Below, piece by piece: positions 9,593-32,555 of a stretch of DNA of 34,563 nt. Within the stretch, counting starts at the first letter, position 1. The number at the start of each line of letters is the position of its first letter. Under the pieces are notes generated by a model that did no database searches, was not told the DNA's origin, and saw only the letters and a list, made by a program, of their open reading frames with translations. Origin of the DNA: a virus. Location of the stretch: IMG/VR virus record IMGVR_UViG_3300042090_002943, positions 1 through 34,563 of that record; one strand, 5' to 3'. The position numbers and the translations under genes were made by a program.

Positions 9593-9650
9593 CGGTCTGG
9601 GCCCGGAGATGCTGGTGCTCGCAGAGCCGGGTAAGCGTCACAAAGGTTCG

Positions 9651-12658: not shown

Positions 12659-12681
12659 CGTTGGAAAACCCCTGGGCTGGC

Positions 12682-13518: not shown

Positions 13519-13519
13519 G

Positions 13520-13801
13520 GTGAGCGATCCTGTACTGATCACACTGGTAGCCGCCGTGCCTACCACTTTGACCGCCATAGCCGCGATCATTTCCGCGCGC
13601 ACCCATACCGCGGTAAAGAAAGTCGATCAACAACTGGTGGCTGTGAGCGTGGCGGTTGACGGACGCTTGCAGCAGTTGCTCGATGCTACCAATGCGCAAG
13701 GCCGGCAAGATGAACGGGATTCCCAACTCGCGACTCCCAACACCGGCAGGCCCCGTTTCAAATGTCCTTTGGGCAAGGAATGCCCAATCCACGACGAGTG
13801 A
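13520..13801 (+). CDS. Small protein with one N-terminal membrane segment
   Basis: GTG at 13520, with GGTGGTAGG upstream and 1 base after the gpW stop, gives 93 residues. Residues of about 4-26 (VLITLVAAVPTTLTAIAAII) are a membrane helix. The middle is predicted coiled coil (VKKVDQQLVAVSVAVDGRL). A CPLGKECP motif stands near the C-terminus. Similar short membrane proteins occur between gpW and portal genes of related phages, with unknown role. A holin-like function is possible but unsupported. Confidence 0.7.
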   Translation: MSDPVLITLVAAVPTTLTAIAAIISARTHTAVKKVDQQLVAVSVAVDGRLQQLLDATNAQGRQDERDSQLATPNTGRPRFKCPLGKECPIHDE

Positions 13802-13829
13802 TCCGGCCTGTTCAGGAAAGGGTGAACGG

Positions 13830-14018
13830 ATGAGCATTTCAGAAATCGCGGACGCCCTTGAGCGCGCGCCGCGGCAAGGAGCAGATAAGGACCGGCCCGA
13901 AGGATCGCGGTACGCGGTCTTCAGCGACACGTCGCTCAACGCGATGGCGCGGGAGTTGCGTCTGGTATCGGCGGATCGGCCGGACGCCGAGACTTTCTAC
14001 GTGCGGGAGGCGCGTTGA
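13830..14018 (+). CDS. Small hypothetical phage protein
   Basis: The 62-residue product (MSISEIADALERAPR...) is acidic to neutral, without known motifs. AGGAAAGG lies before the ATG at 13830, a strong ribosome site. It overlaps the next gene by 4 bases. Its place in the head operon is the only clue to its role. Confidence 0.65.
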   Translation: MSISEIADALERAPRQGADKDRPEGSRYAVFSDTSLNAMARELRLVSADRPDAETFYVREAR

Positions 14019-14281
14019 CGATCTTGGATCGGATAGGCCGGCTGGTCCGTCCGTCTTTGCGCGACGACGGTCCGAAGAGCTTCATGACTCTGGCCAAGGA
14101 GCCTCGTCCGCAGTCGAAGTTGCCGACCGCCAAGCTGTATGTGATCGAGACCGACTTCGAAATATCGCCCGACTCGTACAACAATCTCCAGGCAATGCTC
14201 GACGAGGTCAGGGAGAAGTTCGGCCTGGACTTTTTGATTTTGGAACCTGGCTTCAAGCTGAAACGATTCGATGACTACTGA
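14015..14281 (+). CDS. Small hypothetical protein upstream of the portal gene
   Basis: TTG at 14015 overlaps the preceding stop (TTGA) and gives 88 residues. The 3' end overlaps the portal start by 11 bases. The C-terminal half (LYVIETDFEISPDSYNNLQAM) looks like a folded alpha/beta unit. No family is recognised. The TTG start is chosen because of the overlap; a later ATG would shorten the protein. Confidence 0.6.
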   Translation: MTILDRIGRLVRPSLRDDGPKSFMTLAKEPRPQSKLPTAKLYVIETDFEISPDSYNNLQAMLDEVREKFGLDFLILEPGFKLKRFDDY

Positions 14282-15992: not shown

Positions 15993-16020
15993 ATCCGAAC
16001 GCAAAGGAGCGAACAATCCA

Positions 16021-16509
16021 ATGAAAGGAAATCCGGATGTAATGACCGGTCTGCAAGAGGCCATTGGAATCGAGGCTTCCTTAATGCTCCAGTATTTCAC
16101 GGACGAGCGCGATGTGAAGCGGCTGGGTCTCGATCTGGCCGACGGCTTGAAGCAGCTTCACGATCAGTGCCAGGAGCATTTGAAGTGCCTCACCAGCCGG
16201 CTGCTGTTCCTGGAAGGCGCGCCCGTGGTCGAACCCAAGCCCGCCGCGACGCACAACAAGATCGGCGACATTCTCACCGATGCCCAGGCCGCCGAGCAGT
16301 CAGCCGTTGCCCGATTCACGGTGCTGTGCAAGCAGTGCTATGAGGGCGACGACATGTCGAACTTCCACTTTTACCAGCACCTCGCGAAGTGGCACCGCGA
16401 GGGCGACGACAAGTTCAAAGGCCATCTGGCCTGGCTCCAGCAGCAGCTTTATCAGTTCCAGAAGTTGGGCGAGAGCGATTACATCGCCGTGAACGCGGTG
16501 AAGAACTAG
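16021..16509 (+). CDS. Bacterioferritin-like four-helix protein in the head operon
   Basis: The 162-residue protein resembles bacterioferritin along its length. It starts MKGNPDVMTGLQEAIGIE (compare MKGD at the start of E. coli Bfr), has QYF at 24-26, RLLFLEGAP at 60-68, GHLAWLQQQL at 134-143 and a C-terminal KLGESDYIAV. Aligned by eye, the di-iron ligands are only partly kept: E18, H53, E92 and H135 are present, but the second-helix Glu is C50 and the fourth-helix Glu is F132. The haem-binding Met position is Q51. Iron storage may therefore be altered or lost. The gene lies 28 bases after the portal and 18 before the capsid fusion, on the same strand with AAAGGAG upstream, so it should be expressed with virion proteins. 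A structural role is possible. Confidence 0.75.
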   Translation: MKGNPDVMTGLQEAIGIEASLMLQYFTDERDVKRLGLDLADGLKQLHDQCQEHLKCLTSRLLFLEGAPVVEPKPAATHNKIGDILTDAQAAEQSAVARFTVLCKQCYEGDDMSNFHFYQHLAKWHREGDDKFKGHLAWLQQQLYQFQKLGESDYIAVNAVKN

Positions 16510-16527
16510 GACTAGGAGGCACAATCG

Positions 16528-18840: not shown

Positions 18841-18917
18841 GGCGCTTTGGCATGAGGACAAACGCGGGCCGGTGAATGCGCTGCCCCGCTCCACAAACAG
18901 ACAAAGGAGAGAATTCA

Positions 18918-19661
18918 ATGCAGAATTACGTTCATCGGGGGGTAACCCTCACCGTGACGGCACCCTACGCACTGCTGAGCGGCGGGGGCTGCCGCGTCGG
19001 CAATCTTTTCGGGGTCTCGGTCAACACTCAGAACCTCGGCGACTCGTCCGAAATCAGGGTCGAGGGCGTCTTCGATCTGGTCAAGGATGGCAGCACCTTC
19101 AACGAGGGCGATCTGGTCTATTGGGACAACGTGAATTACGTTGCCACTAGCACGGTCGGATCGAATTTGCTGATTGGCGCCGCGGAACTGATTCAGGCCA
19201 ACGGCACCAACGCTCCCGGCGGCAATACGTCGGACCCGACCGTGCGCGTGCGCCTGTTCGGTGTGCCGGGATTCTCCGGCCAAGCCAACGGCCTCAAAGT
19301 CGCCCACTTCCTTTACAACTTCGCCGTGGACGGCGGCGCCAGTTGCACGCCGGCCAATTCCGATACCATCCCCGCGAACGCGGTGGTGTTCGGCGGCGCC
19401 ATCAACCCGACTACTGCCGTCACGGCCGCCGGGGCGGCGACGGTGGCCATCGGCACGAGCGCGGGATCGGCGGGGAACTCGATCCTCACCGCGACCGCCA
19501 AGGCCTCGCTCTCGGCGGACGCGATCCTGGTGCCGACATGCGTCGCCACTCCATTCAAGATGTCGGCTGCTGGACAGATTACGATCACCGTGGCCACCGG
19601 CCCGCTCACCGCTGGCGTGATCGAAGGGTGGGTCCTGTACGCCGTGGCTAACAACAGTTAG
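18918..19661 (+). CDS. DUF2190 capsid decoration protein
   Basis: The 247-residue protein begins with the DUF2190 pattern: YVHRGVTLTVTAPYALLSGGG, then GDLVYWDNVNYVATS. The fold of this family is a small beta barrel that binds the outside of mature heads and stabilises them (lambda gpD-like role). The C-terminal 120 residues are Ala/Thr/Gly-rich and may be a second beta domain. AAAGGAGA precedes the ATG at 18918, so an earlier in-frame ATG at 18876 is unlikely. It follows the capsid gene directly. Confidence 0.85.
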   Translation: MQNYVHRGVTLTVTAPYALLSGGGCRVGNLFGVSVNTQNLGDSSEIRVEGVFDLVKDGSTFNEGDLVYWDNVNYVATSTVGSNLLIGAAELIQANGTNAPGGNTSDPTVRVRLFGVPGFSGQANGLKVAHFLYNFAVDGGASCTPANSDTIPANAVVFGGAINPTTAVTAAGAATVAIGTSAGSAGNSILTATAKASLSADAILVPTCVATPFKMSAAGQITITVATGPLTAGVIEGWVLYAVANNS

Positions 19662-19718
19662 GCTTCTCGTCCTCCAATTTGGGGCCGGCGATGGCTGGCC
19701 CCCGATTTTCCCTGATCT

Positions 19719-20045
19719 ATGTCCGGATGGCCGACTATTGGCGCGAACGCGAACCGCATCATGCAGAATGCGTTCGGCGAGCCGGCGGTTTACCAGGCGA
19801 TGCAGGGAGGCCAGACGGTCGGCGATTCGGCAACGATCACAATCATCCGGCGCATCCGCGAGCGAATGGAAGCAGGCGCGGTGGCGAGCGTGGAGGAAAT
19901 CGAAGTGAACCCTGCCGATCTTCCCAACGCTCCGCAACGTGGGGATTCGGTTGCCGCCTGGGGAGCGCAGTTTACAGTGACCACCGTGCGCCAGCCCGAT
20001 CCCTATGGGATGATCCATCTGACTCTGACGCTGGTGCCGCAATGA
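19719..20045 (+). CDS. Head-tail joining protein (head completion)
   Basis: The 108-residue protein is beta-rich with the pattern of head-tail joining or stopper proteins (lambda gpFII-like group). It has an N-terminal NRIMQNAFGEPAVYQ stretch and a C-terminal GDSVAAWGAQFTVTTVRQPD followed by a strand. It lies between the decoration and tail completion genes, as in related phages. Its stop overlaps the next start (ATGA). The ribosome site is weak. The family call rests mainly on size, composition and position. Confidence 0.6.
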   Translation: MSGWPTIGANANRIMQNAFGEPAVYQAMQGGQTVGDSATITIIRRIRERMEAGAVASVEEIEVNPADLPNAPQRGDSVAAWGAQFTVTTVRQPDPYGMIHLTLTLVPQ

Positions 20046-20539
20046 TCAATCCCAAAACCATCCTGGCCGAGTGGGTGACCGCGCTTCAGGCTTTGCCAAA
20101 TCTGGTCGAGGCGCTGGGCGGCGATCCGACTACGATTCAGTTCTACTCCGAAAACACCACCGTCTTCGGCCAGCCAACGCAGAATAACGTTCGTCTGGCC
20201 ATTCTTTCGATGCCGCCCGGATCGATTATGGTCGCATGGCAGGGCAGCGACTCCGGGAGGCTCGGCAACGCTCTGGTGTTCGTTCATGATTTCTCGCTCT
20301 ACTTGCGCGCGCCGGAGACAGCCGGCGTTGGCTATGAGGACCTGTGGGCCTGGATTGTGAACGATATTCCGGAGGGCGGCACACTCCGAATGTTGCACAT
20401 CCAGGTCGATTCGAGTTGCGAGCCGATGGACTTCTATCTGCCGAAGGCCAGGCGCAACACTATCGTGATCAGTGCAGACGGGGCCACCTTCGAGTACTTC
20501 GAAGTGCCGGTCCGGCTGATCGAATCTTATAACCCATAG
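20042..20539 (+). CDS. Tail completion / terminator-type protein
   Basis: The 165-residue protein starts at an ATG overlapping the previous stop (ATGA). It has the alternating helix-strand composition of tail terminator proteins (gpU-like group) that cap the tail and connect it to the head. FVHDFSLYLRAPE is in the middle and FEVPVRLIESYNP is at the end. No direct motif proves the family. Position, between the head joining protein and the tail tube, supports the call. Confidence 0.6.
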   Translation: MINPKTILAEWVTALQALPNLVEALGGDPTTIQFYSENTTVFGQPTQNNVRLAILSMPPGSIMVAWQGSDSGRLGNALVFVHDFSLYLRAPETAGVGYEDLWAWIVNDIPEGGTLRMLHIQVDSSCEPMDFYLPKARRNTIVISADGATFEYFEVPVRLIESYNP

Positions 20540-20567
20540 CCCGGTTTGCTGCCGAATCGAGGACAAG

Positions 20568-20726
20568 ATGCAGAACGTTCCCATGGTTTACATGCAATCG
20601 CCGCAAGGCGACGAAATAAAGGAGGTCCAGGCGACCACCGCCATACTTGGGCCTCTCATGGCGCAAGGCTGGCATCAAGTGCCCGCGCCGGTCAAGCCGA
20701 CGGCGAATCCCAAGGAGACCAAATAA
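20568..20726 (+). CDS. Very small protein upstream of the tail tube gene
   Basis: The 52-residue product (MQNVPMVYMQSPQGDE...LMAQGWHQVPAP) has GAGG before its ATG and ends 2 bases before the tail tube start. Short proteins with an AQGW-type segment occur near tail genes of other phages. Its function is unknown. Confidence 0.6.
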   Translation: MQNVPMVYMQSPQGDEIKEVQATTAILGPLMAQGWHQVPAPVKPTANPKETK

Positions 20727-20728
20727 TC

Positions 20729-21766
20729 ATGGCGAATATCAATGAGTTAATGGACGGTTGGAGCTACGGCCAGCAGACGAACATCGCCACGGCCAATACG
20801 GCGGCCATCTGGCGTCACACCAACCTCAACACGAAGCCCTGGGCCAAGGTGCCGGTGAACGAGGACGACCGGGCTGAAATCGGCAAGGGCCATGAATTCC
20901 CGACGCAACTTTTCAAGTCGCATTACAACATGCCGACCTACGAGATCTCGAAGTACGCCTCGTCGGAGTTCCTGGCTTGGGTGATGGCGTTCTCGCTCGG
21001 GAATGTGACCCTGGCCGGCAGCGAATCGCCATACACGTACACCATCGTGCCGGCGCTGGGCGCCACCAATCCAACCGGCCTTGAGTTGCCCTACTTTTCG
21101 TTTGTCCAGCAGATCCGGCCGGGCGGTTCGGCGGTGCTCGACGAAATTCTGGTGGGGTGCGCCGTCAAGGGATGGAAGCTGGCCATCAAGAACTCTCCCG
21201 GCCGCGCCAGCGCGACCATTTCCGTAGAGTGCGTGACCACCGGCCAGTACACCACGCCCAGCGGCGTGACGCTGCCGGCCGTCGCCACGCCGCATGAGTT
21301 CAATGCGAGCATGGTTAGCGCGTTGACCATCAACGGCATCAATTACCTTTCCGGTGGCAGTGCCAAACAGTTCGTTTCCATGGATGCTTCCTGGGAGAAC
21401 AACTTCCGGCCCGGCTTCTTCCCCGGCTCGGGAGCGCAGGACGGTTTCCAGATCCAAGGGCGCTTCGAATGGGGCGACCGCAGCTTCGCGGTGCAGTTCG
21501 TGGTGCGCGTCCAGCACGGGTCCGAGGAGTACACGAATCTCATCAATCAGACCACCGGCCCCGCCACCATCACATTTACTCGCGACACCAACAACGCCTT
21601 TACAATGGCCATCCAGTCAATGGGCTTCAACGTCGTGGAGTTGTCGAACACGGATGGCATCGCCACCATGCAGGTGACCGGCGTCCAGTTGTACGATCCG
21701 ACCAACGGCCTGGTAACGATGTCGATCACCACGCCGCAGAACGGCATCTGCCAAGCGCCATCGTAG
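20729..21766 (+). CDS. Major tail tube protein (probable)
   Basis: The 345-residue beta-rich protein has many Thr, Gly and Asn residues and repeated strand patterns (VTLAGSESPYTYTIVPALG, then GRASATISVECVTTG). It lies before the tail chaperone and tape measure genes, which is the usual position of the tube subunit that polymerises to form the tail. It is longer than lambda gpV (246 residues), so an added Ig-like domain is possible. AAGGAGA lies 11 bases before the ATG at 20729. Confidence 0.75.
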   Translation: MANINELMDGWSYGQQTNIATANTAAIWRHTNLNTKPWAKVPVNEDDRAEIGKGHEFPTQLFKSHYNMPTYEISKYASSEFLAWVMAFSLGNVTLAGSESPYTYTIVPALGATNPTGLELPYFSFVQQIRPGGSAVLDEILVGCAVKGWKLAIKNSPGRASATISVECVTTGQYTTPSGVTLPAVATPHEFNASMVSALTINGINYLSGGSAKQFVSMDASWENNFRPGFFPGSGAQDGFQIQGRFEWGDRSFAVQFVVRVQHGSEEYTNLINQTTGPATITFTRDTNNAFTMAIQSMGFNVVELSNTDGIATMQVTGVQLYDPTNGLVTMSITTPQNGICQAPS

Positions 21767-21778
21767 GTCAATTTTTGA

Positions 21779-21850
21779 CGCGGAGTGGCGCAGCGGCAGC
21801 GCGTCGGACTCATAATCCGGAGGCCGCCGGTTCGAGGCCGGCCTCCGGAA
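21779..21850 (+). tRNA. tRNA-Met-like (anticodon CAT), phage-borne
   Basis: The cloverleaf is clear from the D arm onwards. The D stem is GCGC/GCGC, the anticodon stem is TCGGA/TCCGG with loop CTCATAA, and the T arm is GCCGG-TTCGAGG-CCGGC. The acceptor stem pairs at five positions (CGGAG/CTCCG), but the two outer pairs mismatch (C1 with A72 and G2 with G71), and CCA is not encoded. The CAT anticodon could read Met, or Ile if converted to lysidine. The C1-A72 mismatch recalls initiator tRNA, but the three G-C pairs of the initiator anticodon stem are incomplete here. It lies in the tail operon, 12 bases after the tail tube stop. Confidence 0.85.
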
Positions 21851-21869
21851 TACCCTTCAAGAGGCCTTT

Positions 21870-22481
21870 ATGGAACAACAAACGAGCAAGCCGATGTTTG
21901 ACGCATCGAAGCCTATCGTCGTGCCGATCCTGTCGGGCGGGGAAAAGCGATGCGAGGTGCGGTTCCCGACGGACGAGGAATGGTGTTCTTGGGCGCGGGT
22001 CCAACGCACCATTCGCCACTTCCTGGGACGCGGGAAGTCGCAGAGCGAGGACGTGGATTTGCCCAAAATCAACGCGGAGTTGTTCAAGAAGATCCGCATC
22101 GACAAGGACGGTCCGGAATTCGACGACGCCGAGGCCGGCATGATCATCGGTCGCGTTGAGCGCTCGCAAGTAACCGACATCCAACGAGAGGGCGTCAACT
22201 ACCGGATCGAGATGAAGGTTCCCGGCGCGCGGGTGACGCATGTACTGCGGATGCCGACCGCCAAGGAGATGCAGGACCACGAACGGGCCTCGACCAGCGT
22301 GGTGGCCGCGCGGCGGTCGATTGAGACGCGCGCATTCTTGGAGCCGAGTGGCGCGCTTTATGACAAGCTTCACGTGTCGCACGAGGGCTATGCCGGCGAG
22401 GTGCCTATCGTGCACAAATCCGCGGCGGTATCCGAAGTGGTCGCGCAACTCGCAATCGAGGGCGACGACGACCCGGAATAG
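21870..22481 (+). CDS. Tail assembly chaperone-like protein
   Basis: The 203-residue protein lies between the tail tube and tape measure, the place of tail chaperones (lambda gpG). It has a mixed alpha/beta N-terminal half (VRFPTDEEWCSWARVQRTIRH near 30-50) and an acidic C-terminus (AIEGDDDPE). I see no clear slippery sequence near its 3' end, and the next gene has its own ribosome site, so the usual gpG/gpGT frameshift is not supported. AGAGG precedes the ATG. The function is inferred from position. Confidence 0.55.
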   Translation: MEQQTSKPMFDASKPIVVPILSGGEKRCEVRFPTDEEWCSWARVQRTIRHFLGRGKSQSEDVDLPKINAELFKKIRIDKDGPEFDDAEAGMIIGRVERSQVTDIQREGVNYRIEMKVPGARVTHVLRMPTAKEMQDHERASTSVVAARRSIETRAFLEPSGALYDKLHVSHEGYAGEVPIVHKSAAVSEVVAQLAIEGDDDPE

Positions 22482-22510
22482 CTACGCCCGACTCTCCGGA
22501 GGGGCCGGGC

Positions 22511-22927
22511 TTGCGATTCTTGATCCGATCAGCATGCCGCCAGGGATCGCTCTGCGGTAGGGACGAAGACTGCCCGGACCGGGTTTTCCGGTGCCGGCAG
22601 TGCGGCTACTCTTCTCGGGATGAGTTGGATGGTTGTCCGGCGTGCGCCGCCGGCTGGAAGGCCATCGATGTTAGCCACGGGCCAAACTGCCCGAGGAACC
22701 TGCTCGACGAGGCGATGGATACGCCGAACGGCATCCTGGTGCGCCGGTGCTTTCGACTTCTCAACGCGAAGGCAATTGGTCTGACGATCACCCTCAACGA
22801 CATCACCGAAGAGGAGTTCCGCGTGATGGAGTTGATCGATACCGAGCAGAAGGAACACGTCGCGGCCGAGGACCGTGATGCAAAGAGCTTCCAGGAACTG
22901 CTGATCCGGAAATTATCGCGGCGATGA
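22511..22927 (+). CDS. Zinc-ribbon protein in the tail operon
   Basis: TTG at 22511 follows GGAGGGG and gives 138 residues. Residues of about 27-47 form a zinc ribbon: CRQCGYSSRDELDGCPAC. The rest (NGILVRRCFRLLNAKAIGL, then ITEEEFRVMELIDTEQKE) resembles C-terminal regions of proteins located between chaperone and tape measure genes in related phages. It could bind the tape measure during assembly. The function is inferred from position. Confidence 0.6.
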   Translation: MRFLIRSACRQGSLCGRDEDCPDRVFRCRQCGYSSRDELDGCPACAAGWKAIDVSHGPNCPRNLLDEAMDTPNGILVRRCFRLLNAKAIGLTITLNDITEEEFRVMELIDTEQKEHVAAEDRDAKSFQELLIRKLSRR

Positions 22928-22929
22928 TG

Positions 22930-23100
22930 CTATTTCCCTCTGGGTTTCTTTGGTGGTTTCGGCTTCCAGATCGCCTTCACCGCGGCTTCCTCCTTTACGA
23001 ACTCCGCCGCGCGCTCCAAGAATTCGAGCTTTTCGGCCTTCGACAGACCTGATTCTTGCAACAGGTCGAGCAGGCGACGGTAAAATTGGAGGGCGGTCAT
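22930..23100 (-). CDS. Small helical protein on the opposite strand
   Basis: The 56-residue product (MTALQFYRRLLDLLQESG...) is strongly helical and ends in a Lys/Pro-rich tail (WKPKPPKKPRGK). GAGAAA lies about 8 bases before the start at 23100, and this ribosome site is part of a large inverted repeat at 23103-23162. The gene is transcribed against the tail genes and ends 3 bases from their neighbour. A longer start at 23175 would run through the inverted repeat. No family is recognised. Confidence 0.5.
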   Translation of the reverse strand: MTALQFYRRLLDLLQESGLSKAEKLEFLERAAEFVKEEAAVKAIWKPKPPKKPRGK

Positions 23101-23102
23101 GA

Positions 23103-23162
23103 ATGATTTCTCGCAGTGGAGGGTGGAGACGACGGTCCAACCCACTGCCGCCGAGAAATCAT
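23103..23162. repeat. Long inverted repeat upstream of the small minus-strand gene
   Basis: ATGATTTCTCG at 23103-23113 pairs with CGAGAAATCAT at 23152-23162. CAGTGG at 23114-23119 pairs with CCACTG at 23142-23147, leaving a 4-base bulge and a 22-base loop. In minus-strand RNA this hairpin would cover the ribosome site of the gene ending at 22930. No T-tract follows, so it is not a standard terminator. Confidence 0.8.
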
Positions 23163-23394
23163 ACCACGCCGACAATGGGGCTGCCGGGCTTCCGTTCGTT
23201 CCCTAATGTGCGGCGACGGCCGGAAAAGTAGATCCACTCATAAGCGACCGCCCATCAACGTGGGTGGTAAACACTGCGGCGTCAGGGAGGACGCATATGT
23301 CAGCAACGCGCGTTACTCGGCCAAATGGAGCGTGATATGAGAATGTGAGAAACACGGCGCCCGTGGGGTGTGGTAACGTCCTTTATGACGGGTT

Positions 23395-23739
23395 ATGAAC
23401 ATTTCTGAATTCGTCAAGAAGCTTGTCCCCGAACCGGCCTGGCAGGACGGAACGCTTCTCCCATACCAACAGGCGGAAGTGCCAGTGCATTACGTGCTCG
23501 ATGAGGATTGCTCCGGCGGCAAATTGAAGGCGCGCGACCCAGACAGGGGCATTCCAAAAGAACTATACGGCCCTCCTGGCGACGCAATTTTCGGTTGGTG
23601 GCGTGGCCAGCATCAGCTGAAGCTTAGCAATGGAGGCACGGTTCTCATTCTCCGAATTTTGGGCCCGTCCGATGAAGGCATACACCGTTTCGAAGTTTCG
23701 TCATCTGATCAAGTGAAAGAGGTTCTGGCAGGGGAATGA
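23395..23739 (+). CDS. Hypothetical protein, cargo region
   Basis: The 114-residue acidic protein (MNISEFVKKLVPEPAW...) has normal codon use and beta-rich segments (HQLKLSNGGTVLILRILG). No family is recognised. It lies between two minus-strand genes in the stretch that separates the tail chaperone genes from the tape measure, so it may be a cargo gene rather than a virion part. The ribosome site is weak. Confidence 0.6.
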   Translation: MNISEFVKKLVPEPAWQDGTLLPYQQAEVPVHYVLDEDCSGGKLKARDPDRGIPKELYGPPGDAIFGWWRGQHQLKLSNGGTVLILRILGPSDEGIHRFEVSSSDQVKEVLAGE

Positions 23740-24056
23740 ATGTCGGTAGGTCCTTGCAATCCGCGGTTCCCGACGTTTCCTTCACCGCTGACAAGGGCAA
23801 CTCTGTGTGCGCTCTGCGCAAGGCGTTGAGACTGCAGTCAATGGCGAGTTGACCTCAGGCTGCGCGTCGGTTCACCCTTCGACCGGCAACATGTTGTTAT
23901 GTCACAATTGGGCCGCAACGGCGCCAGCAGCCGGGCCGCGAGATCAAAGTAGACGGCTGGTCGAGTGCCCGCGGGGGCTCCGGCTCGAAGTGGACGTTCC
24001 GAGGCTCCGCGCGAATTGGCGCCTCGCCTTCCGAATATTGGAGTAAGAGCGCTCGC
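23740..24056. other. Intergenic stretch, nothing supported
   Basis: No convincing frame, RNA or repeat is seen. The short plus-strand frame from 23807 has an unlikely composition. Confidence 0.4.
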
Positions 24057-24419
24057 CTAAATACCGTCCGCCAAAAACTGCTCAAGTTCTAGTGATGACC
24101 TGTTCTGAAAACTTAGGACCGGTCTGAGCGGTGAGGGTTCCCGCAATTGCTTAAGAGGTATGAGTCGCCGCAAACCCTTGAGCGGCTCCAGCGCTGCCAG
24201 TACTCGTAGTCGTTGCCGAGTGTAACCGACTGCGCGCCCCTGATGATCCCATACTAGAGCGCCGTCAAACCAACCAAGGTGGCTCCCATTGATCCCATAG
24301 ATATGTTCTTCATAGAGGTACGCCACAGGCGTACCGTCCCACAGAAACAGTGTATTGTCGAGGTCCCCGCAGATGTACGCTACCGGCTGACCTTCGGCAG
24401 TGAACAGGCTAGTGTCCAT
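24057..24419 (-). CDS. 4-fold beta-flower-like protein
   Basis: The 120-residue protein has repeated short units. GQPVAYICGD, GTPVAYLYEEHIYG, GSHLGWFDG and GRAVGYTRQR at about 10-70 share a Gly-x-x-(V/L)-(A/G) core with aromatic residues at fixed spacing. This is the pattern of the small 4-fold beta-flower family, whose function is not known. The C-terminal 50 residues are Leu/Pro/Arg-rich. Only the end of a very long minus-strand open frame corresponds to the real gene; the ATG at 24419 is the first that begins the repeat unit. A promoter-like TATACT and an operator-like palindrome lie just upstream, so the gene is probably transcribed and regulated on its own. Confidence 0.7.
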   Translation of the reverse strand: MDTSLFTAEGQPVAYICGDLDNTLFLWDGTPVAYLYEEHIYGINGSHLGWFDGALVWDHQGRAVGYTRQRLRVLAALEPLKGLRRLIPLKQLREPSPLRPVLSFQNRSSLELEQFLADGI

Positions 24420-24432
24420 TCTTCTGGCCGCG

Positions 24433-24463
24433 AGTATAACAGATTGCGGATATGAGTATCCGC
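24433..24463 (-). promoter_or_regulatory. Promoter -10 box and operator-like palindrome
   Basis: On the minus strand TATACT (24433-24438) is a good -10 box, 14 bases before the start codon of the beta-flower gene. A perfect inverted repeat GCGGATA-tgag-TATCCGC (24446-24463) lies just upstream, between the -10 box and where the -35 would be. This is a common place for a repressor operator. Confidence 0.5.
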
Positions 24464-24653
24464 CTACCACATGAGCGGATAAGTCGCCATCTCGGACTTT
24501 GCCCCGGCAGGTGGGTCCCGAAACGTGACATTCTGAGCAATAGATCCTCCCTGGTTGCCAAGCGTTTACTACGCGGTTTCGACGCGGCCCATGTGGAACC
24601 CATAATACCCATCCCAGAGATTTGCCGCCTTCCTGCACTACTAACGGTGGACC

Positions 24654-25181
24654 ATGCCCCGATTTCAAACAGTTGTTCGTCACGCCCGGTTCGTTTACTC
24701 TCCATACACCTCCGATGAGATGCTTGGCTTCGGTGAGTTGCTGGCCGATACCATCCGTGCGCGCATCCAGAGCGGCCAAAACATCTACGATCAGGCGGCG
24801 GCACCGCTGAAGCCGGGACGCGATGGCCACCGGGGCTACCCGGACTTCAAGGCGGCGCGCGGTCTGAAACCCATTCGCGACTGGACATGGAGCGGCCACA
24901 CGCTGCGCTGTCTGAAGGTGCTTACGGTCAATGAGAACCGCGCGACCGTCGGCTTTCTCGACGAGGCGTTTCCCGGCCGGACCCATACGGCTTCGGAAAT
25001 CGCCTTCTGGAACAACCAGCGCGAACACATGTGGGGTGTGTCGCCGCGCGACAGCGCGGTGGTAGTTACTGCTATGACGAACTACCGTCAATTGGTGGTC
25101 CTCTCCGGCGGCACCGAGTTGGCCGGATTCCGGCAGTACGGCGCGGCGCAGTATTTCTCCGGTTTGAAACTGGCGGCATAA
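24654..25181 (+). CDS. Virion morphogenesis-type protein
   Basis: The 175-residue protein has the outline of phage morphogenesis or tail-completion proteins: a helical N-terminus, then PIRDWTWSGHTLRCLKVLTV with ATVGFLDEAF, and NNQREHMWGVSPRD near 120-133. These elements recall the Mu gpG / P2 gpS group, where a strand bearing G, an NN-or-HQ-type segment and a final (P/S)PR(D/P) occur in this order. It ends 3 bases before the tape measure. The family call is by pattern only. Confidence 0.5.
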   Translation: MPRFQTVVRHARFVYSPYTSDEMLGFGELLADTIRARIQSGQNIYDQAAAPLKPGRDGHRGYPDFKAARGLKPIRDWTWSGHTLRCLKVLTVNENRATVGFLDEAFPGRTHTASEIAFWNNQREHMWGVSPRDSAVVVTAMTNYRQLVVLSGGTELAGFRQYGAAQYFSGLKLAA

Positions 25182-25184
25182 ACC

Positions 25185-28100
25185 ATGCCTCAAGCAGAGC
25201 GCGTAATTCTCGAAGCCGAGGACGAGGTCACTCCGGTAGTCGGCAAGGCCAACGCCGGCCTCGAAAGCTTCGAACAGAAAGCGGAGTCGTCCCACGGCAA
25301 GGTCATCCGCATCACGGACCAGACCCGGTCGTCGATCCAACGGCTTATTGCGTCCCTCGAAAAGCAGGCCGAGACGTATGGAAAGAGCGGTGTGGACCGG
25401 CTGATCGCGCAACGCGACTCGCTGCTGCAGCGTTACGCGAAGGAACCGCAGGCCATCGACGCCATCACGCGTTCGTACGAGCGCATGATCGAGACGCAGA
25501 AGAAAGCCGACGCCGAGGCGATGCTGGAGAAGCAGTCCCGGTCGATTCAGACCTTCGGCGAGCGCGTCGCGCAGTCGATTGAGAATCCCGTGCAGGGAGC
25601 GAGCAGCGCCATTGGATCGCTGCTGACCAGGGTAGGCCCTCTGGGCATCGGGCTGGCGGCCGGAACCACCGTGATGGCTGGTCTTGCGGTGGCGACCTTT
25701 GAGGCGGCAAAGAGTCTGGGCGAGTTCGGCGTCCAGGTGAAGGATGCGGAACTGCGCACCGGTCTCACCTCCAAAGAGGTCGGACAGTTTGGCTTCGCGG
25801 CACGGGCGGTGGGGCAGGATGTTACGATCTTCGAACGGCTGATGCGTGGGCTCTCCACCGCCGTCGAGGACACTGGAAAGGAGGGCGAGAAGGCGCGCAC
25901 GTGGCTTACGCGGTTCGGCGTCGATATCCAGGGTGTGCGCACCGGCATGATCCCCACGTCCGAAGTGCTCCTGCAGGTGGCGGGCGGGCTGGAGAAGCTG
26001 CCGCCGGGATTCGACCGCACGCGGGTGGCGATGGACCTGTTCAAGCGTGTAGGCATCGAGGCGATTCCGGTTATGGACGGGCTGCGCGAGCGCGTCGAAC
26101 ACGCGAAGTCGATGGGGTTTGGCATCACCGAGGCCGATGTCAAAAAGTACGAGGAGCTGAACAACAAAGCCGTCGAGTTTGAAATGCGGTGGGAGTCGGC
26201 GATCCGCTCGGTCAAAGGAATGCTGCTCGACTTGGCGAGCGCGTTTGGCTGGGTACTGGATAAGATCGCGACGAAGCCGCCGACCAAAGCGTCTTTGGAG
26301 GAACAGCAGCGGCATGCTGCGCGCGTGGCGGCGCTGGAGACGCAGGGACAAGCTTCTCTTGAGGCGCAAAGCGCTCAACTGCAGAAGCAAATGAACCAGT
26401 ACAAGCCCGGCGCGATGGACTGGGTGAAAGCCGGCGTGTCGGGTCTTGGCGCTTACATGGGCGTCAATATCCCGGTGGGGAATCTGAGCGCGGGTGCGCA
26501 GCAGTATGGTTCGGCGGCATCGCAGTTAACGTACGTCAAGGAGGCTCTGGACGCGCTCCAAAACAAGCCGCAGCCGCACGCGCCATTGGCAGAACCTCCC
26601 ACCGGTGGCACCGGCGAGAGCGCTTTGGATTCAGCGATGAGGCAGGCGCGAAAGGAACTCGCAGGTCTTGCCGGTGGCGGCAAGGACAGGTTTGCGGCCA
26701 TTGCGGCAGAGCGGCAGGAAGCCATCAACGACGCGATGGAGAGGTTCAAAGGGAAGGCTGGTCCGCTGGTCGAACTGCTCAAGCAGGTTTACGACGCCAA
26801 GTGGCTGAAGGAATACAACTCCGAACAACAGCGGACAACGAAGGAGTTGGACGAACAGTCGAAGCGGTGGACGGAACTCTTGGGGAAGTCCGCAAACGTC
26901 TCCGGCGCAGTGTTTAAGCAGGACATCGCCGAGGGCACCAAGAAGCTGGAAGAGCAGGCTAAGGCGGTCGGGAAACTCAGCGCGGAGTGGAACAAGCTCA
27001 CGGCTGCCCGAGAGAGCCAAACAGTCGCGCACGAGAAGCGCATGATCCAGATCGGTGCGGACGCGAACGACCCGCTGGGCACGCTGGCTCAAATTCAGGC
27101 GCTCGATAAAGGGCAGATCGAGCAGAGGCGGCAGGCCGCGCTCGCGTTCTTGCCAAGCGACCCTTTGCAGAAGATGATGCAGCAGGCGAACGCCGAGAAG
27201 GAAGCGGCCAATGCGCTGGGCGAGCTCCGCTACCAGTGGGAAGAGAAAGTGGCCGAGGTCCGGAAGAAAGCCGACCAGGAACAGCAGGAGATGCTCGACA
27301 AGCAGGAAAAGTCTATCGAGAAGATCGCGGAGAAGCTGTTCGACACGCTGTTCACAAAGCCCAAGGATTTCGGCAAGGATCTCGCGAAGACGGTCCATCA
27401 GGCGGTACTGAAGCCGGTCGTCGAAGGCGTGAGCGGCATGGCTGCGAACGCTCTTCACCCGGTGATTTACGGTGAGGACGGCAAGGGCGGACTGGCCGGA
27501 ATCTTCAAGGGCATGTTTGGCGGCGGCAAGTCGGGCGACCCGGTAAAGGCATCGACGGACCAGAATACAGCCGCGACGATACAGAACTCCGCTCACGTGG
27601 CGGCACTCACTGCTGTGCTGGCAGGTGCCATGGGCGTGGCGGCCCCGGCGATCGCCGCACCCGCGATACCAGGCGTCTCGTTACCCAGCATTTCCGCCCC
27701 GGCCGTTTCGATCCCAACGCGAATGGCGTCGCCCTATGCTGGCGGCGGTGGCGGTGTTGTCGGCGGTGGCGGCGGCGCAGTGGCGGCAGTGGCCGGCCCG
27801 AGTTTCTCCGACCTGGCCAATCTGCCATTGAACCACGACCGCATCGCGCAGACGCTCGATATGAGCGCGCCGATTAGCCAGTCTGGGCCGAACGGTGCGT
27901 ACAGCACTGCGGCCATGGCGAGCCTGCCGATGAGCCACGATCCAGTGGCGCAGATCCTAGCCATGGCCGGTGGCGGCAAGCTGACCGGTGGTGGTGGCGC
28001 GTCGTCACTGGTATCGAATCTCAAGGGCTCGGTCTGGAACCAGAAGGAATTCACATCGCTCCAGGGAGCCGGAGACAGCGGCTTTGTCAGCGGTTTTGGA

Positions 28101-28604
28101 GCTGTGGCGAAATCTCCGGCCGCCGGTGCCGCCGGCATGATGCTCGCCCAAAGCGGCTTGCTGGGCTCTCACCAGGGGAGTTGGGGCGGCGTTGGCATGG
28201 GCGCTGCCGGAGGCGCAATGATTGGTTTTCAGATGGGCGGTCCGCTCGGTGCACTCATCGGCGGCATCGCAGGTGCCGGAATCGGTATCGGCGAGAAGCT
28301 CGCTGGCATCGAATCGCCGCAGAAGAAAGCTCACGACGACATCAAGCAGATTTACGGTGTGGACATTCCGCAGAACAGCGGGACCATAAAGCAGGTGGTT
28401 AGCATCGCGCAGTCGCAGTTCGGCGGCGACATCGCGGTGGCGGTGCGATCGCCCAACGTCCGCCAACTGGTGATGCTCTATTCGGAAGCCACCGGCCAGA
28501 AGATGCCGCTATCGGCTTCGACGCCGTACGCCGGGAGTCTTGTGGAGTCGGGCGGCAATCTGTATCAACAGGCGAGCTTCCAGAACAATGCCCTACTGGG
28601 TTGA
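25185..28604 (+). CDS. Tail tape measure protein
   Basis: The 1139-residue protein is the ruler that sets tail length and guides DNA ejection. Typical features are long helical regions (about 20-125 and 470-760), a hydrophobic stretch near 149-175 (VGPLGIGLAAGTTVMAGLAV), a Gly/Ala/Pro-rich region near 815-930, and a second hydrophobic Gly-rich segment near 1000-1045. Its length would predict a tail of roughly 170 nm by the usual rule of about 1.5 angstrom per residue. The C-terminus (QQASFQNNALLG) meets helicase-derived sequence at once, so the natural end may have been lost. The start follows the previous stop by 3 bases. Confidence 0.92.
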   Translation: MPQAERVILEAEDEVTPVVGKANAGLESFEQKAESSHGKVIRITDQTRSSIQRLIASLEKQAETYGKSGVDRLIAQRDSLLQRYAKEPQAIDAITRSYERMIETQKKADAEAMLEKQSRSIQTFGERVAQSIENPVQGASSAIGSLLTRVGPLGIGLAAGTTVMAGLAVATFEAAKSLGEFGVQVKDAELRTGLTSKEVGQFGFAARAVGQDVTIFERLMRGLSTAVEDTGKEGEKARTWLTRFGVDIQGVRTGMIPTSEVLLQVAGGLEKLPPGFDRTRVAMDLFKRVGIEAIPVMDGLRERVEHAKSMGFGITEADVKKYEELNNKAVEFEMRWESAIRSVKGMLLDLASAFGWVLDKIATKPPTKASLEEQQRHAARVAALETQGQASLEAQSAQLQKQMNQYKPGAMDWVKAGVSGLGAYMGVNIPVGNLSAGAQQYGSAASQLTYVKEALDALQNKPQPHAPLAEPPTGGTGESALDSAMRQARKELAGLAGGGKDRFAAIAAERQEAINDAMERFKGKAGPLVELLKQVYDAKWLKEYNSEQQRTTKELDEQSKRWTELLGKSANVSGAVFKQDIAEGTKKLEEQAKAVGKLSAEWNKLTAARESQTVAHEKRMIQIGADANDPLGTLAQIQALDKGQIEQRRQAALAFLPSDPLQKMMQQANAEKEAANALGELRYQWEEKVAEVRKKADQEQQEMLDKQEKSIEKIAEKLFDTLFTKPKDFGKDLAKTVHQAVLKPVVEGVSGMAANALHPVIYGEDGKGGLAGIFKGMFGGGKSGDPVKASTDQNTAATIQNSAHVAALTAVLAGAMGVAAPAIAAPAIPGVSLPSISAPAVSIPTRMASPYAGGGGGVVGGGGGAVAAVAGPSFSDLANLPLNHDRIAQTLDMSAPISQSGPNGAYSTAAMASLPMSHDPVAQILAMAGGGKLTGGGGASSLVSNLKGSVWNQKEFTSLQGAGDSGFVSGFGAVAKSPAAGAAGMMLAQSGLLGSHQGSWGGVGMGAAGGAMIGFQMGGPLGALIGGIAGAGIGIGEKLAGIESPQKKAHDDIKQIYGVDIPQNSGTIKQVVSIAQSQFGGDIAVAVRSPNVRQLVMLYSEATGQKMPLSASTPYAGSLVESGGNLYQQASFQNNALLG

Positions 28605-28608
28605 ACGG

Positions 28609-29340
28609 ATGACGGTGAACTACCTCGAAAATGCAGGTGGCGCGGCAGAGAAGGCCAAAGCAGGCTGGAAGCTGCGGTGGCCTGATGGAACGACCACACA
28701 ATCCGCTGTCTTCACACTCGCGGACGCGGAAAACCAGCCCGCAGCAGCCCATTTAACACTGGAGGAACCGCGAATTCGTGGAATTGCGACTCGGGTGCCG
28801 CGCTTTGTTCCTGGCCAGCCGATTCCCTCTATTGAGGTGACCGGTGTCCCATGGGAAATCCGGGGTTATTGGTCTCTATGGACAGTCGCGATTCGGAGTG
28901 CGGAATGGTGCAAGGAGCGGGTGCTGCCGTTGTTTCTGCACGATGATGGACGCGTACTGGCTCCAACAGCGCGGCACCTATGGTCGCTGCTGCTGGAGCA
29001 GATGCCCAGTCCGGGCCGTTACCTGGATGGCGGCGAATCCACCCGGATCTTCGCGGAAGTGACATCGGCTGCCGAGCGTTACGGCCATCCGCTCTACGAA
29101 GAACTGTTGCGGTTCCACCAAGGGCGGCTCGGGCGGGAGAGAGAGAATAAGCGCTATGCATTCGATGCCCGGCGCCGCGCCATAGAGCGGATCGGGCTAC
29201 CTGCCGTGCGCCAGCATCGCCTGAATGAACTTGCGAAAGAAGAGTCAGCTTGGAACCTTGAATCGGAATCGCGCGCCCACGTCCATCCTGATCTCATTCC
29301 GCGGTTGATATTGCGCGTGGAGGGTCTTGGTAATGCCTGA
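28609..29340 (+). pseudogene. C-terminal remnant of a BREX type 3-like SNF2 helicase
   Basis: The 243-residue frame matches only the end of large SNF2/DEAD-type helicases found in BREX-3 (BrxHII) and related systems. WKLRWPDGTT is near 19, LTLEEPRIRGI near 49, WSLWTVAIRS near 88, VLPLFLHDDGR near 105, and HVHPDLIPRLILRVEG near the end. The ATPase motifs (Walker A, DExx, motif VI) are absent. Upstream of about 28600 the DNA belongs to the phage tape measure, so the helicase has lost most of its length. The ATG at 28609 or 28588 is accidental or re-used; GTTGAACGG before 28609 is only a weak ribosome site. It overlaps the PglZ gene start. Confidence 0.7.
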
Positions 29341-31309
29341 CTGGCGCACGCAGATCCTGCAAGAGTTCACGCCCGGCGTGCGGCCGATAACGGCGGTTGC
29401 CGATCCAGATGGATTGCTGACAGAACCGCGCATGAGCCAAGCACTCACCGAGCGAGGCTTCGAGTCGGTCTTGTTTGAGGATTCGATCTCCTTCCGGTTC
29501 GCTTACGAGTCACGCTTCCGCTCGCGGTTGGATGCCGGGGAAAGCGTAGATCTGGTGGTGCTGGTTGGCGATGACGCCGCTGCGCTGGTGAAGCTACCCT
29601 TCGATGTCCTCGCTGGTGCCCGGAAGCTCTCGTTCGCCTTGGCGGATGTGTTCCCCCAGTTCAGTTATCCAGTGCTGCGCGCCTTGGAGCCTCAGTACCT
29701 CGACCTGCTCTATGAAGCGCAGCACCGCTTCAATCTTGGGGTTCTTGGGGAAAACGCCACGAAGGACTTCATCCTACGCCACGTCTTCGAGATCGCGGCG
29801 GAGCTGATCAAAACCGATGCAGATCTCTTGCGAACGTTGTTGCGGAGGCACTACAGGCTCCAGTTGATTCCAAGGCCCTTCGTCGACCGGCTGGTAGCCA
29901 TTCTGCATCAGAGTGGACGCTTTCGAGGCTGGCCGCTGGCTGAGCTGTTCACGGACCGAAGCCTGTTTTTCGCCTTCTTGCAAGAGCGCTGGCCGAGGTT
30001 TCTCGGCATCCTAAGCGAGGTGCCGTTGCCCGGAGACATTCCGCTAACCGTTGAAGGGCCAGCGGATCTCCCGTTCGATAACCCGGATGTGCGCGTCTAC
30101 ATCGATAACCTGTTCATGGAAGGCACGCTGCAGCCCATCGAATGGATCAGCATTCCCAAGGGGTGGGCCGCCGCTGGCGTGCGTCACGATCCTGAGCAGG
30201 ACCGAACAAACCGTTTCGCGGCCCTGGCTGAGGCTGCGGAGCGCGAGTTGCCTGGCGAGGACGCTCGTCACGGCGATTGGCTGTCATTCGCTACTCTCTG
30301 GGCGCAATTCAATCTACTGGTTTGCGAGATCGGTGCAAAACCCAGTCTGGACGTGACCGCGCGAGTCTCCAGCATTCGATCTCAGGTCGACGCCCGGTTC
30401 GGTCTGTGGTTGCAAAGGCGGTTCGGCAGCCTATACAGCTTGCCGGCCACGGCGCCGGTGATGGTGCACCACATTGCGCGTTTCCTCGCCGCGCAAATGG
30501 ACGGCGGCCGTAGGGTGGCCCTCGTCGTAGTGGACGGGCTCGCATTCGACCAGTGGCTGGCGGTCCGCCAGAAGCTCAGCGAGCAGCGTGCCACGTGGCG
30601 CTTCGAGGAGAGCGCTGCCTTCGCGTGGGTGCCGACGATTACCTGTGTGTCCCGACAAGCCATCTTCGCTGGAAAGGCACCGCTCTACTTTCCGTCGAGC
30701 ATCTACGGCACAGGCAGAGAGGCGAGCCTTTGGCAGCAGTTCTGGGTTGATCATGGTCTCGTCGGCCGCGATGTCGCATACCTTAAGGGCCTTGGTGAGG
30801 CGTCGACGCTGCAAGCGCTCGAAGAGGCGTTGTCGGAGCCCAAGCTCAAAGTGATCGGTGCCGTTGTGGATAAGGTAGACCGTATCATGCACGGCATGGA
30901 GTTGGGCGCGGCGGGCATGCATAACCAAGTGCGGCAGTGGGCGGCGGAAGGATTCTTGTCCGCGGCCTTGGAGTTGCTGCTCTCGAATGGATTCATCGTG
31001 TTCTTAACCGCGGATCACGGTAATGTGGAGAGCGTGGGCTGTGGAAGGCCGAGAGAAGGTATGACTGCTGACGTTCGCGGTGAACGGGCGAGGATCTATT
31101 CCGACGCTGTTCTCCGCGCCAATGTTGCTTCGAGATTTGCGACCGCCATCTCGTGGAAACCTCTGGGGCTTCCGGAAGATTTCCTCCCCCTGCTGTCCGC
31201 GGATCGTACCGCCTTCGTGCAGGAAGGGCATCGGACTGTTGCGCACGGTGGAGTGACACTGGAGGAGGCCATTGTGCCGTTCATTCGGGTCGTAGGAGGA
31301 AAGGATTGA
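29333..31309 (+). CDS. pglZ: PglZ-domain protein of a BREX type 3-like system
   Basis: The 658-residue protein carries the PglZ domain, a member of the alkaline phosphatase superfamily. ALVVVDGLAFDQW includes metal-binding D401. WVPTITCVSRQAIFAGKAPLYF follows near 425-446. TADHG at 559-563 includes D561 and H562. An N-terminal helical domain (about 1-370) precedes it. PglZ is found in all BREX systems and is needed for anti-phage defence; its phosphatase or nuclease activity differs between systems. GGAGGG precedes the ATG at 29333 by 8 bases, and the start overlaps the helicase remnant. Downstream it overlaps the BrxA-like gene. All visible key residues are kept, so the gene appears intact. 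Confidence 0.9.
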   Translation: MPDWRTQILQEFTPGVRPITAVADPDGLLTEPRMSQALTERGFESVLFEDSISFRFAYESRFRSRLDAGESVDLVVLVGDDAAALVKLPFDVLAGARKLSFALADVFPQFSYPVLRALEPQYLDLLYEAQHRFNLGVLGENATKDFILRHVFEIAAELIKTDADLLRTLLRRHYRLQLIPRPFVDRLVAILHQSGRFRGWPLAELFTDRSLFFAFLQERWPRFLGILSEVPLPGDIPLTVEGPADLPFDNPDVRVYIDNLFMEGTLQPIEWISIPKGWAAAGVRHDPEQDRTNRFAALAEAAERELPGEDARHGDWLSFATLWAQFNLLVCEIGAKPSLDVTARVSSIRSQVDARFGLWLQRRFGSLYSLPATAPVMVHHIARFLAAQMDGGRRVALVVVDGLAFDQWLAVRQKLSEQRATWRFEESAAFAWVPTITCVSRQAIFAGKAPLYFPSSIYGTGREASLWQQFWVDHGLVGRDVAYLKGLGEASTLQALEEALSEPKLKVIGAVVDKVDRIMHGMELGAAGMHNQVRQWAAEGFLSAALELLLSNGFIVFLTADHGNVESVGCGRPREGMTADVRGERARIYSDAVLRANVASRFATAISWKPLGLPEDFLPLLSADRTAFVQEGHRTVAHGGVTLEEAIVPFIRVVGGKD

Positions 31310-32055
31310 GTGATCGCCAGCGCATGATCGGATATAACCGGACGGTCAAACTCCGTTGGCTGGATGAGACGGTGGACCTGTTCCTGGCCGGTATGTCCGC
31401 CGCCGACATTTATGAGGCGCTGCGTGAGCGTTTGAAGGACGAGCTTTCCGTTGGGAGCACAGCCCAGCGCGGCAGTCGCGAGAAAACGATCACGATTCTA
31501 ATGAGGACCTGGGTGCGCGTGCCGCCGCCGTTGCGGGAGTTGCGCAAGGACGGCGTCCAACTCCTGCATGGAGTGCGCCGATCAGAGAGATTGCCGCTGC
31601 ACTGGGGTATGACGATGGCCGTCTATCCGTTCTGGCGGGTGGTAGCGGACGTGACGGGTCGGCTGTTCCGTTTACAGGGGACTGCCGCTTCAATGCAGGT
31701 TCAGCGGCGCGTCAAGGAGTTGCTCGGTGAGAGGGAAGCGGTCGCAAGATCGGCAAGGTACGTTCTACGGGCTTTCGCGGATTGGGGCGTGATCGTCGAT
31801 GCCGCACGAAGGGGCGAGTATTCTCCCTCAGCTTCCTTCCCGGTTATGAACCCTAAGGTGGCAGCTTGGCTCTTGGAAACTGCGGTCACTTCTGCTCCGG
31901 ATGGCGTCACGGACTTCCACAGCCTCGTAAATGGCCCATGCCTCTTTCCCTTCCAGATCGGCAGGATGGCCCCGGAGCTTCTCGCGGCGTCCGGCCGCCT
32001 GGAAGTTGTCCGGCACGGCTTAGAAGAGACCATCGTGCGCGTCCGCAAGGGTTAG
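31306..32055 (+). CDS. BrxA-like protein (last gene of a BREX-3-like set)
   Basis: TTG at 31306 lies 7 bases after a strong AGGAGG and overlaps the PglZ stop (TTGA). The ATG at 31324 is too far from that site. The 249-residue product is helical and probably cytoplasmic: DLFLAGMSAADIYEAL near 20-35, then a winged-helix-like middle and VARSARYVLRAFADWGVI near 147-164. In type 3 BREX the gene after pglZ is brxA; position and size fit, but I cannot confirm the family from motifs alone. Its role in BREX is unclear even in studied systems. Confidence 0.55.
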   Translation: MSDRQRMIGYNRTVKLRWLDETVDLFLAGMSAADIYEALRERLKDELSVGSTAQRGSREKTITILMRTWVRVPPPLRELRKDGVQLLHGVRRSERLPLHWGMTMAVYPFWRVVADVTGRLFRLQGTAASMQVQRRVKELLGEREAVARSARYVLRAFADWGVIVDAARRGEYSPSASFPVMNPKVAAWLLETAVTSAPDGVTDFHSLVNGPCLFPFQIGRMAPELLAASGRLEVVRHGLEETIVRVRKG

Positions 32056-32555
32056 ATGGCGCGCCGTGATGCACGCCCGCGAGCTGGCTGTACTTCCGAT
32101 ACGCGGGCCGGAGGCTTCCGCTCGTGAGTCTCCATCTCCCGCTTCATCTCTTCCATTGTTCGCCCGAGGTCGAAGAAGAATGCAAATGCGGTCTGGCCCG
32201 GCGTTCGCAGAACGCTCATTATCTTCTCAGGACTGGTCGCCACATAAACATCGGTCCCGGTGATTATCAGCCGGCACTCCGCGAGTGGATGGCTGGTTAG
32301 GCCCTTTCGAGTCCGCAGGAACTCCACGACTCGCCGGAGCTTTCGCGTCGAAACGCCCGCTTCCCGAAGCTCTCGAGCAACGCGGAGTGCAAGCAGGTCG
32401 GAGAACGAGTATTTGCGTTCACTGCCGGTTCCCTGAGCCTCCGCGATGCTCGGCGCGATGAACCTTGTCCGCGCCCAGTAGTCGATATTCCGGAAGGAGA
32501 CGCCTGTGATCCGAACGGCGTCGCCCGTTGAGAAGCTCTCGGTCGCCTTGGCCAT
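32052..32555 (-). CDS. MerR-type transcriptional regulator
   Basis: The 167-residue protein begins with a MerR-like winged helix: FSTGDAVRITGVSFRNIDYW at about 8-27 (HTH), and KYSFSDLLALRVARELRE at 48-65 (second helix pair). Then comes a helix (VSTRKLRRVVEFLR) that would dimerise. The C-terminal part (about 92-140) has an alpha/beta appearance (RLIITGTDVYVATSPEKI) and no metal-binding Cys. The start follows AAGGAAG. Its end overlaps the BrxA-like gene by 4 bases, tail to tail. It may regulate the PglZ genes or a lost partner. Confidence 0.8.
   Translation of the reverse strand: MAKATESFSTGDAVRITGVSFRNIDYWARTRFIAPSIAEAQGTGSERKYSFSDLLALRVARELREAGVSTRKLRRVVEFLRTRKGLTSHPLAECRLIITGTDVYVATSPEKIMSVLRTPGQTAFAFFFDLGRTMEEMKREMETHERKPPARVSEVQPARGRASRRAI

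What the first reader, a model, noticed from the sequence alone, without database searches (positions are those of the whole stretch)
28560..32055. Phage tape measure joined directly to the end of a BREX type 3-like locus
Seen: the tape measure stop is followed within 5-30 bases by a frame that resembles only the last 240 residues of a SNF2-type helicase, then complete pglZ and a BrxA-like gene, each overlapping and each with good ribosome sites. Known: brxHII-pglZ-brxA are the last three genes of BREX-3. Tail-tip and lysis genes, expected after the tape measure, are absent. Inferred: a deletion or recombination joined a phage genome to a defence island. The remaining defence genes may now be read from the phage late promoter.
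Basis: partly seen in the sequence, partly recalled or inferred. Interest (0 to 1): 0.75.

Follow-up and report, generated by a model that had tools for sequence, protein, structure and literature searches.

The report
Decaying prophage fused to BREX-3 remnant
In what looks like an Acidobacteria chromosome, a broken integrated phage has been joined by an untemplated deletion (or, less likely, a sequencing chimera) to the last third of an anti-phage BREX type 3 operon; it is a clear genomic scar rather than a new working system.

Summary
Phage homology (tape measure, 73% identical to two IMG/VR relatives) stops at 28591. BREX-3 homology (75-87% DNA identity to three Acidobacteria loci) starts at 28589, so the two share only 2-3 bases. 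In relatives the tape measure runs 78 conserved residues further, followed by about 10 kb of tail genes that the window lacks. Full BrxHII is 935-944 residues; the window keeps only its last ~250, the two C-terminal domains without the Swi2/Snf2 motor. pglZ and brxA are complete with strong ribosome sites; the helicase fragment has none above background. brxC, pglXI and the 5' two thirds of brxHII are gone. The left end is host chromosome with tRNA-Glu, a site where a related prophage also sits, so this is an integrated prophage, probably in Bryobacterales. The same contig has a second sharp deletion (2-bp overlap) fusing terS to terL. Best reading: a cryptic prophage eroded by illegitimate deletions, one of which ran into a neighbouring or cargo BREX-3 locus. 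A library or assembly chimera is not excluded without reads, but a 2-bp overlap is too short for k-mer misjoining. Expression from the phage late promoter is untested; a working BREX is unlikely.

The parts
3..1244 (-). host chromosomal gene left of the prophage (open at the window's left end)
   Evidence: window 1-1373 matches chromosomes of many genomes of the same order, best 78%; gene next to tRNA-Glu in G224 as well
1283..1357 (+). tRNA-Glu (CTC), likely attachment site at the left edge
   Evidence: ARAGORN and Rfam; host similarity ends about 17 bases past it; in G224 a related prophage starts just after the same tRNA
1918..5896 (+). GmrSD-type gene (1918-4476) and PLD-nuclease gene (4595-5896) between tRNA and phage left end; accessory defence genes
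   Evidence: Pfam GmrSD_N 5.8e-25, PLD/NgoFVII weak; PADLOC HEC-05 1.6e-36
6172..28591 (+). phage left end and late genes up to the join
   Evidence: homology to L090 from 6172, L015 from 6292, L003/L004 up to 28591
7189..9138 (+). terS-terL fused reading frame, second deletion at 7333-7334
   Evidence: PHROG terminase small subunit 5-53, large subunit 49-639; separate genes with several hundred extra bases between in the relatives that hold both parts; 2-base overlap 'CA'
25185..28604 (+). tape measure gene missing its conserved last 78 residues (replaced by LLG-stop)
28589..28591 (.). join: 2-3 shared bases (GC or TGC)
   Evidence: phage similarity ends 28591, brxHII similarity begins 28589
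28592..29340 (+). 3' end of brxHII; possible frame from ATG 28609 (243 aa), from about residue 686 of about 935
   Evidence: 84-86% identical to L012, L013, L014; PADLOC BrxHII 677-930/933
29333..31309 (+). pglZ, BREX type 3, complete
   Evidence: NCBIfam NF033449, 738.5 bits
31306..32055 (+). brxA, complete (TTG start)
   Evidence: PADLOC BrxA 6.8e-82; strong ribosome site
32052..32555 (-). MerR-like regulator, stop codons overlap with brxA; 75-80% relatives in mobile regions of G224 and G186
   Evidence: Pfam MerR_1 2.7e-11

Best explanation
This is a cryptic prophage in an Acidobacteriota (Bryobacterales) chromosome, integrated at tRNA-Glu(CTC), that has lost DNA by illegitimate (2-3 bp) deletions. 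One deletion started 78 codons before the end of the tape measure gene and ended in codon ~686 of brxHII, removing the phage tail module on one side and brxC, pglXI, two further genes and the Tudor and Swi2/Snf2 parts of brxHII on the other (shown by comparison with relatives; that it happened as one event is inferred). What remains (two C-terminal BrxHII domains, PglZ, BrxA) is most likely a non-working relic: no methyltransferase, no BrxC ATPase, no helicase motor, no ribosome site for the fragment. pglZ and brxA could still be read through from the phage late operon (inferred, untested). Whether BREX-3 was cargo of this prophage or a neighbouring island at the same tRNA is open.
For: Both flanks have intact homologues running through the join. 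Overlap of only 2-3 bases. Second sharp deletion in the same contig, terS-terL, with a 2-base overlap. Left end is host chromosome with tRNA-Glu and a relative prophage follows the same tRNA in G224. Phage terminase relatives (58 of 257 genomes) and the three closest BREX-3 loci occur in the same order. No missing BREX or tail gene is found elsewhere in the window. Domain limits of BrxHII (Tudor 1-75, helicase 75-670, then two a+b domains) from PMC12839542.
Against: The window is a metagenomic IMG/VR record, so no isolate or reads back the join, and no second contig spans it. The helicase fragment, pglZ and brxA show no sign of decay: dN/dS 0.07-0.10, 0.11 and 0.07, although a recent deletion explains that.
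Confidence: 0.72

Rival explanations
1. The join is an artefact: a chimeric library molecule or an assembly error linked phage DNA to BREX DNA of another cell in the same sample.
For: Metagenomic record without reads. No other contig confirms the join.
Against: A k-mer assembler needs far more than the 2-3 shared bases seen here (general knowledge of assemblers). Both sides belong to the same host order, and a second sharp deletion of the same kind lies in the same contig. Library chimeras are usually single molecules that do not reach assembly depth (general knowledge).
Confidence: 0.2
2. A reduced but working defence unit: the two C-terminal BrxHII domains, PglZ and BrxA are kept as a module, expressed with or after the phage late genes.
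For: Reading frames intact and dN/dS low. The deletion leaves exactly the two domains after the motor, and an independent in-frame deletion in G012 ends within about 17 bases of the same place.
Against: BrxC and the methyltransferase, core parts of type 3 BREX, are gone (PMC12839542). The fragment has no ribosome site. G012 also has a broken pglZ (88-bp deletion), pointing to decay there too. Complete relatives have the full helicase.
Confidence: 0.06
3. A natural, stable phage gene order in which a phage lineage carries a short helicase protein, pglZ and brxA after the tape measure.
For: Genes are co-directional and tightly packed. Three other IMG/VR contigs carry BREX-3 next to a phage tail gene.
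Against: Tape measure is cut in a conserved region. No relative has this order. In those other contigs BREX-3 is convergent with the tail genes, and brxHII, where enough of it is held (L005, L008), is long (978 and at least 872 residues).
Confidence: 0.02

Closest known systems
BREX type 3 (brxF-brxC-pglXI-brxHII-pglZ-brxA)
   Same: brxHII 3' end, pglZ and brxA in the same order and overlap, 75-87% DNA identity to Acidobacteria BREX-3 loci L012-L014
   Different: brxF, brxC, pglXI and the Tudor and motor parts of brxHII missing from the window
Cryptic (defective) tailed prophage of Bryobacterales with fused protease/major capsid protein and gpA-type terminase
   Same: terminase, portal, capsid, tape measure genes, tRNA attachment site as in relatives L015, L023, L004, G224
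   Different: no tail module after the tape measure, tape measure truncated, terS fused to terL by deletion, no integrase seen in the window
brxHII internal deletion in Candidatus Solibacter MAG (G012, L014)
   Same: keeps almost the same C-terminal piece (240 residues) next to pglZ and brxA
   Different: there 19 N-terminal residues are fused in frame and pglX lies upstream; no phage

Membership tests
BREX type 3 system | BREX-3 type PglZ | tested here: met
   NF033449, 738.5 bits against cut-off 250
BREX type 3 system | BrxA | tested here: met
   PADLOC BrxA 6.8e-82, full length
BREX type 3 system | full BrxHII helicase with Swi2/Snf2 motor | tested here: not met
   only profile 677-930 of 933; relatives 934-1015 residues
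BREX type 3 system | BrxC ATPase and PglXI methyltransferase | tested here: not met
   no match in the window to the upstream genes of L013; the window starts in host chromosome on the left, the right side beyond 34563 is unknown
Prophage (integrated tailed phage) | terminase, portal, capsid and tape measure genes | tested here: met
Prophage (integrated tailed phage) | host chromosome and tRNA attachment site at the edge | tested here: met
   left edge only
Prophage (integrated tailed phage) | complete tail module and intact terminase genes (able to form virions) | tested here: not met
   tail module absent, tape measure cut, terS-terL fused
Assembly or library chimera | reads fail to span the join | not testable with these tools
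   no reads held

The most novel reading that the evidence does not exclude
A motor-less BREX-3 remnant (the inactive-nuclease and C-terminal BrxHII domains with PglZ and BrxA) is retained by selection and driven by prophage late transcription, so that it acts only when the prophage is induced or a related phage activates it; the near-identical deletion end point in G012 would be convergent.
Probability: 0.05. Interest if true: 0.6.

Novelty: new member of a known kind. Interest (0 to 1): 0.27.

Why it matters
It shows at base level how prophage erosion can run into a defence locus and leave orphan defence genes behind, which automated tools then report as partial BREX systems or as phage-borne defence. 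If the orphan pglZ and brxA were still read, the locus would give a natural test of what these parts do without BrxC and the methyltransferase. Otherwise its value is as a caution for surveys of defence genes in viral contigs.

Tried and rejected
A conserved short helicase gene beside pglZ: rejected, relatives are full length, and the short ones are a deletion (G012) or cut by contig ends (G095, G549); G340 is split into two frames. A stable phage gene order: rejected. The MerR gene as repressor of this phage with BREX as cargo: considered, but its relatives lie in other contigs beside a BREX-1 like operon and a Piwi gene (G224) or next to a tRNA-Glu fragment in the opposite orientation (G186), so it does not settle whether BREX was cargo. 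Distant MerR relatives appear to lie among ordinary host genes (judged by eye). Attachment-site repeat of tRNA-Glu inside the window: none. Structure prediction of the fragment: low confidence (pLDDT 57), fold search meaningless. No PDB sequence match. Exact-match scans for the join or its flanks in IMG/VR: none. Promoter and terminator patterns between 28000 and 32700: no more than in shuffled sequence. The row 'pglZ_Cpart' was out of frame and is ignored. PglZ in the phage collection: no match.

Full report
What is there. The window is a complete IMG/VR record of 34563 bases, linear, without reads. The tape measure gene 25185-28604 ends 4 bases before ATG 28609 of a 243-residue frame that matches only positions 677-930 of the 933-position BrxHII profile; pglZ and brxA follow, each overlapping the gene before it, and both are complete. 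pglZ and brxA have strong ribosome sites (-9.8 and -10.2 kcal/mol, about the best 5% of the window), but the helicase fragment has none (-4.5, background mean -4.4).

The join is sharp. Two IMG/VR phages (L003, L004) encode the tape measure at 73% identity. DNA similarity to them ends at window base 28591. Their gene runs on for 78 residues that are conserved in four relatives, followed by about 10 kb with a DUF2460-like gene, a 1789-residue gene and a Gp80-like fibre gene; none of these is in the window (the short tblastx fragments are scattered chance matches). From the other side, DNA similarity to BREX-3 loci of three Acidobacteria genomes (L012, L013, L014; 84-86% protein identity) begins at 28589. 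In L012 and L013 brxHII is 935 and 944 residues and runs through this point. The two similarities overlap by 2-3 bases (window ...AACAATGC|CCTACTGGG...).

What was lost. In L013 the order is brxC, pglX, an AAA ATPase gene, an unknown gene, brxHII, pglZ, brxA (names of the first four by resemblance and order, not by a family search here). None of the genes before brxHII is in the window. By the domain limits in PMC12839542, the retained piece, from about residue 686, is the inactive nuclease-like domain and the last a+b domain, without the Tudor domain (1-75) and the Swi2/Snf2 motor (75-670).

Is the short form natural? In 257 genomes of the order of Ca. Solibacter, five have this gene: 939, 950 and 934 residues, one cut by a contig end, and one of 262 (G012). 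The last is L014: 19 residues of the BrxHII N-terminus fused in frame to the C-terminal 240, with pglX upstream, an 88-bp deletion in pglZ and runs of N. It is an internal deletion, not a conserved short gene. A sample of the phylum gave one more full gene (1015), one split into two frames and one at a contig end. That the G012 deletion ends within about 17 bases of the window's join is unexplained; with two cases it may be chance.

Host and setting. Bases 1-1373 (a chromosomal gene on the minus strand and tRNA-Glu) match chromosomes across the order, best 78%, and the match stops about 17 bases past the tRNA. In G224 a related prophage begins after the same tRNA: window segments 6172-6342, 6957-7128 and 10324-11285 recur in order behind it. 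Terminase relatives occur in 58 of 257 genomes of the order, the best at 83%. So both sides of the join are at home in the same host order (Bryobacterales by NCBI taxonomy of Ca. Solibacter), and the contig is an integrated element, not a free phage genome.

A second deletion. In the relatives that hold both parts (about 20 IMG/VR loci and G149) the small and large terminase genes are separate, with several hundred more bases between the parts matching residues 48 and 49 of the window's protein; in the window they are fused in frame at 7333-7334 with a 2-base overlap (PHROG families). Two such scars in one contig fit a prophage losing pieces by illegitimate recombination and make a single random chimera less attractive.

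How it most likely works. Shown: truncation of both genes, loss of tail and BREX genes, short overlap, host edge, second deletion. Inferred: that one deletion made the join; that the prophage cannot make virions; that the BREX remnant does not work as BREX, because BrxC, the methyltransferase and the helicase motor are missing. Not shown: any transcription from the phage late promoter. dN/dS of the three remaining genes is low (0.07-0.11), which says only that the break is recent relative to the divergence from the relatives or that constraint persists; it cannot separate the two.

Cargo or neighbour. Three IMG/VR contigs (L005, L006, L008) have BREX-3 genes directly beside a phage tail gene, in convergent orientation; since they were found by searching viral contigs this is a biased sample, and the tail gene was recognised by eye. 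The MerR-like gene right of brxA has close relatives only in G224 and G186, in G224 as the first gene before a BREX-1 like operon and back to back with a Piwi gene, primase and integrase. This places the BREX remnant beside a mobile-element control region but does not show whether the BREX genes rode in this prophage.

Chimera. Reads are needed. Against it: 2-3 shared bases are too few for a k-mer join, both parts come from the same host order, and a second scar of the same kind lies in the contig. I put it at about 20%.

Verdict. A real-looking, well-resolved rearrangement of an ordinary kind: a cryptic prophage fused by deletion to a BREX-3 remnant. Interest is modest.

Noticed in passing
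window 7189-9138, scar at 7333-7334: Terminase small and large subunit genes are fused in frame by a deletion with a 2-base overlap; separate genes in the relatives that hold both parts.
   Followed up: yes
window 32052-34563: MerR-like gene and divergent leader conserved with G224:C44 and G186:C100 (operator-like TAGCACAGTTCAGTG twice, then a GC-rich leader); in the window a 1.66-kb insert with a P63C-domain gene (33132-34175) splits the two operator-like copies.
   Followed up: partly
L092 1-19300 (G224:C44:20000-39999): The MerR gene precedes BrxA, BrxC and PglX genes (BREX-1 like) on one strand and faces a Piwi-domain gene, a primase and an integrase: possibly a regulator shared by defence modules of a mobile element.
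   Followed up: partly
L093 6030-6057 (G186:C100): A 28-base copy of the tRNA-Glu 3' end lies right after the MerR stop, like an attachment site, but in the opposite orientation to what the window would need.
   Followed up: partly
L014 901-1689 (G012): In-frame deletion in brxHII (19 N-terminal residues fused to the last 240), probably at a CGGRTG repeat, ending about 17 bases from the window's join point.
   Followed up: partly
window 1918-5896: GmrSD-type and PLD-nuclease genes sit between tRNA-Glu and the phage left end; the same interval is about 1.1 kb without them in G224, so it looks like an accessory defence slot.
   Followed up: partly
window 22927-24650 and 21779-21850: About 1.7 kb without clear genes or repeats, and a tRNA-Met, are present in the late gene region but absent at these places in L003 and L004.
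   Followed up: no
L005, L006, L008: BREX-3 genes directly beside, and convergent with, a phage tail gene in three IMG/VR contigs.
   Followed up: partly
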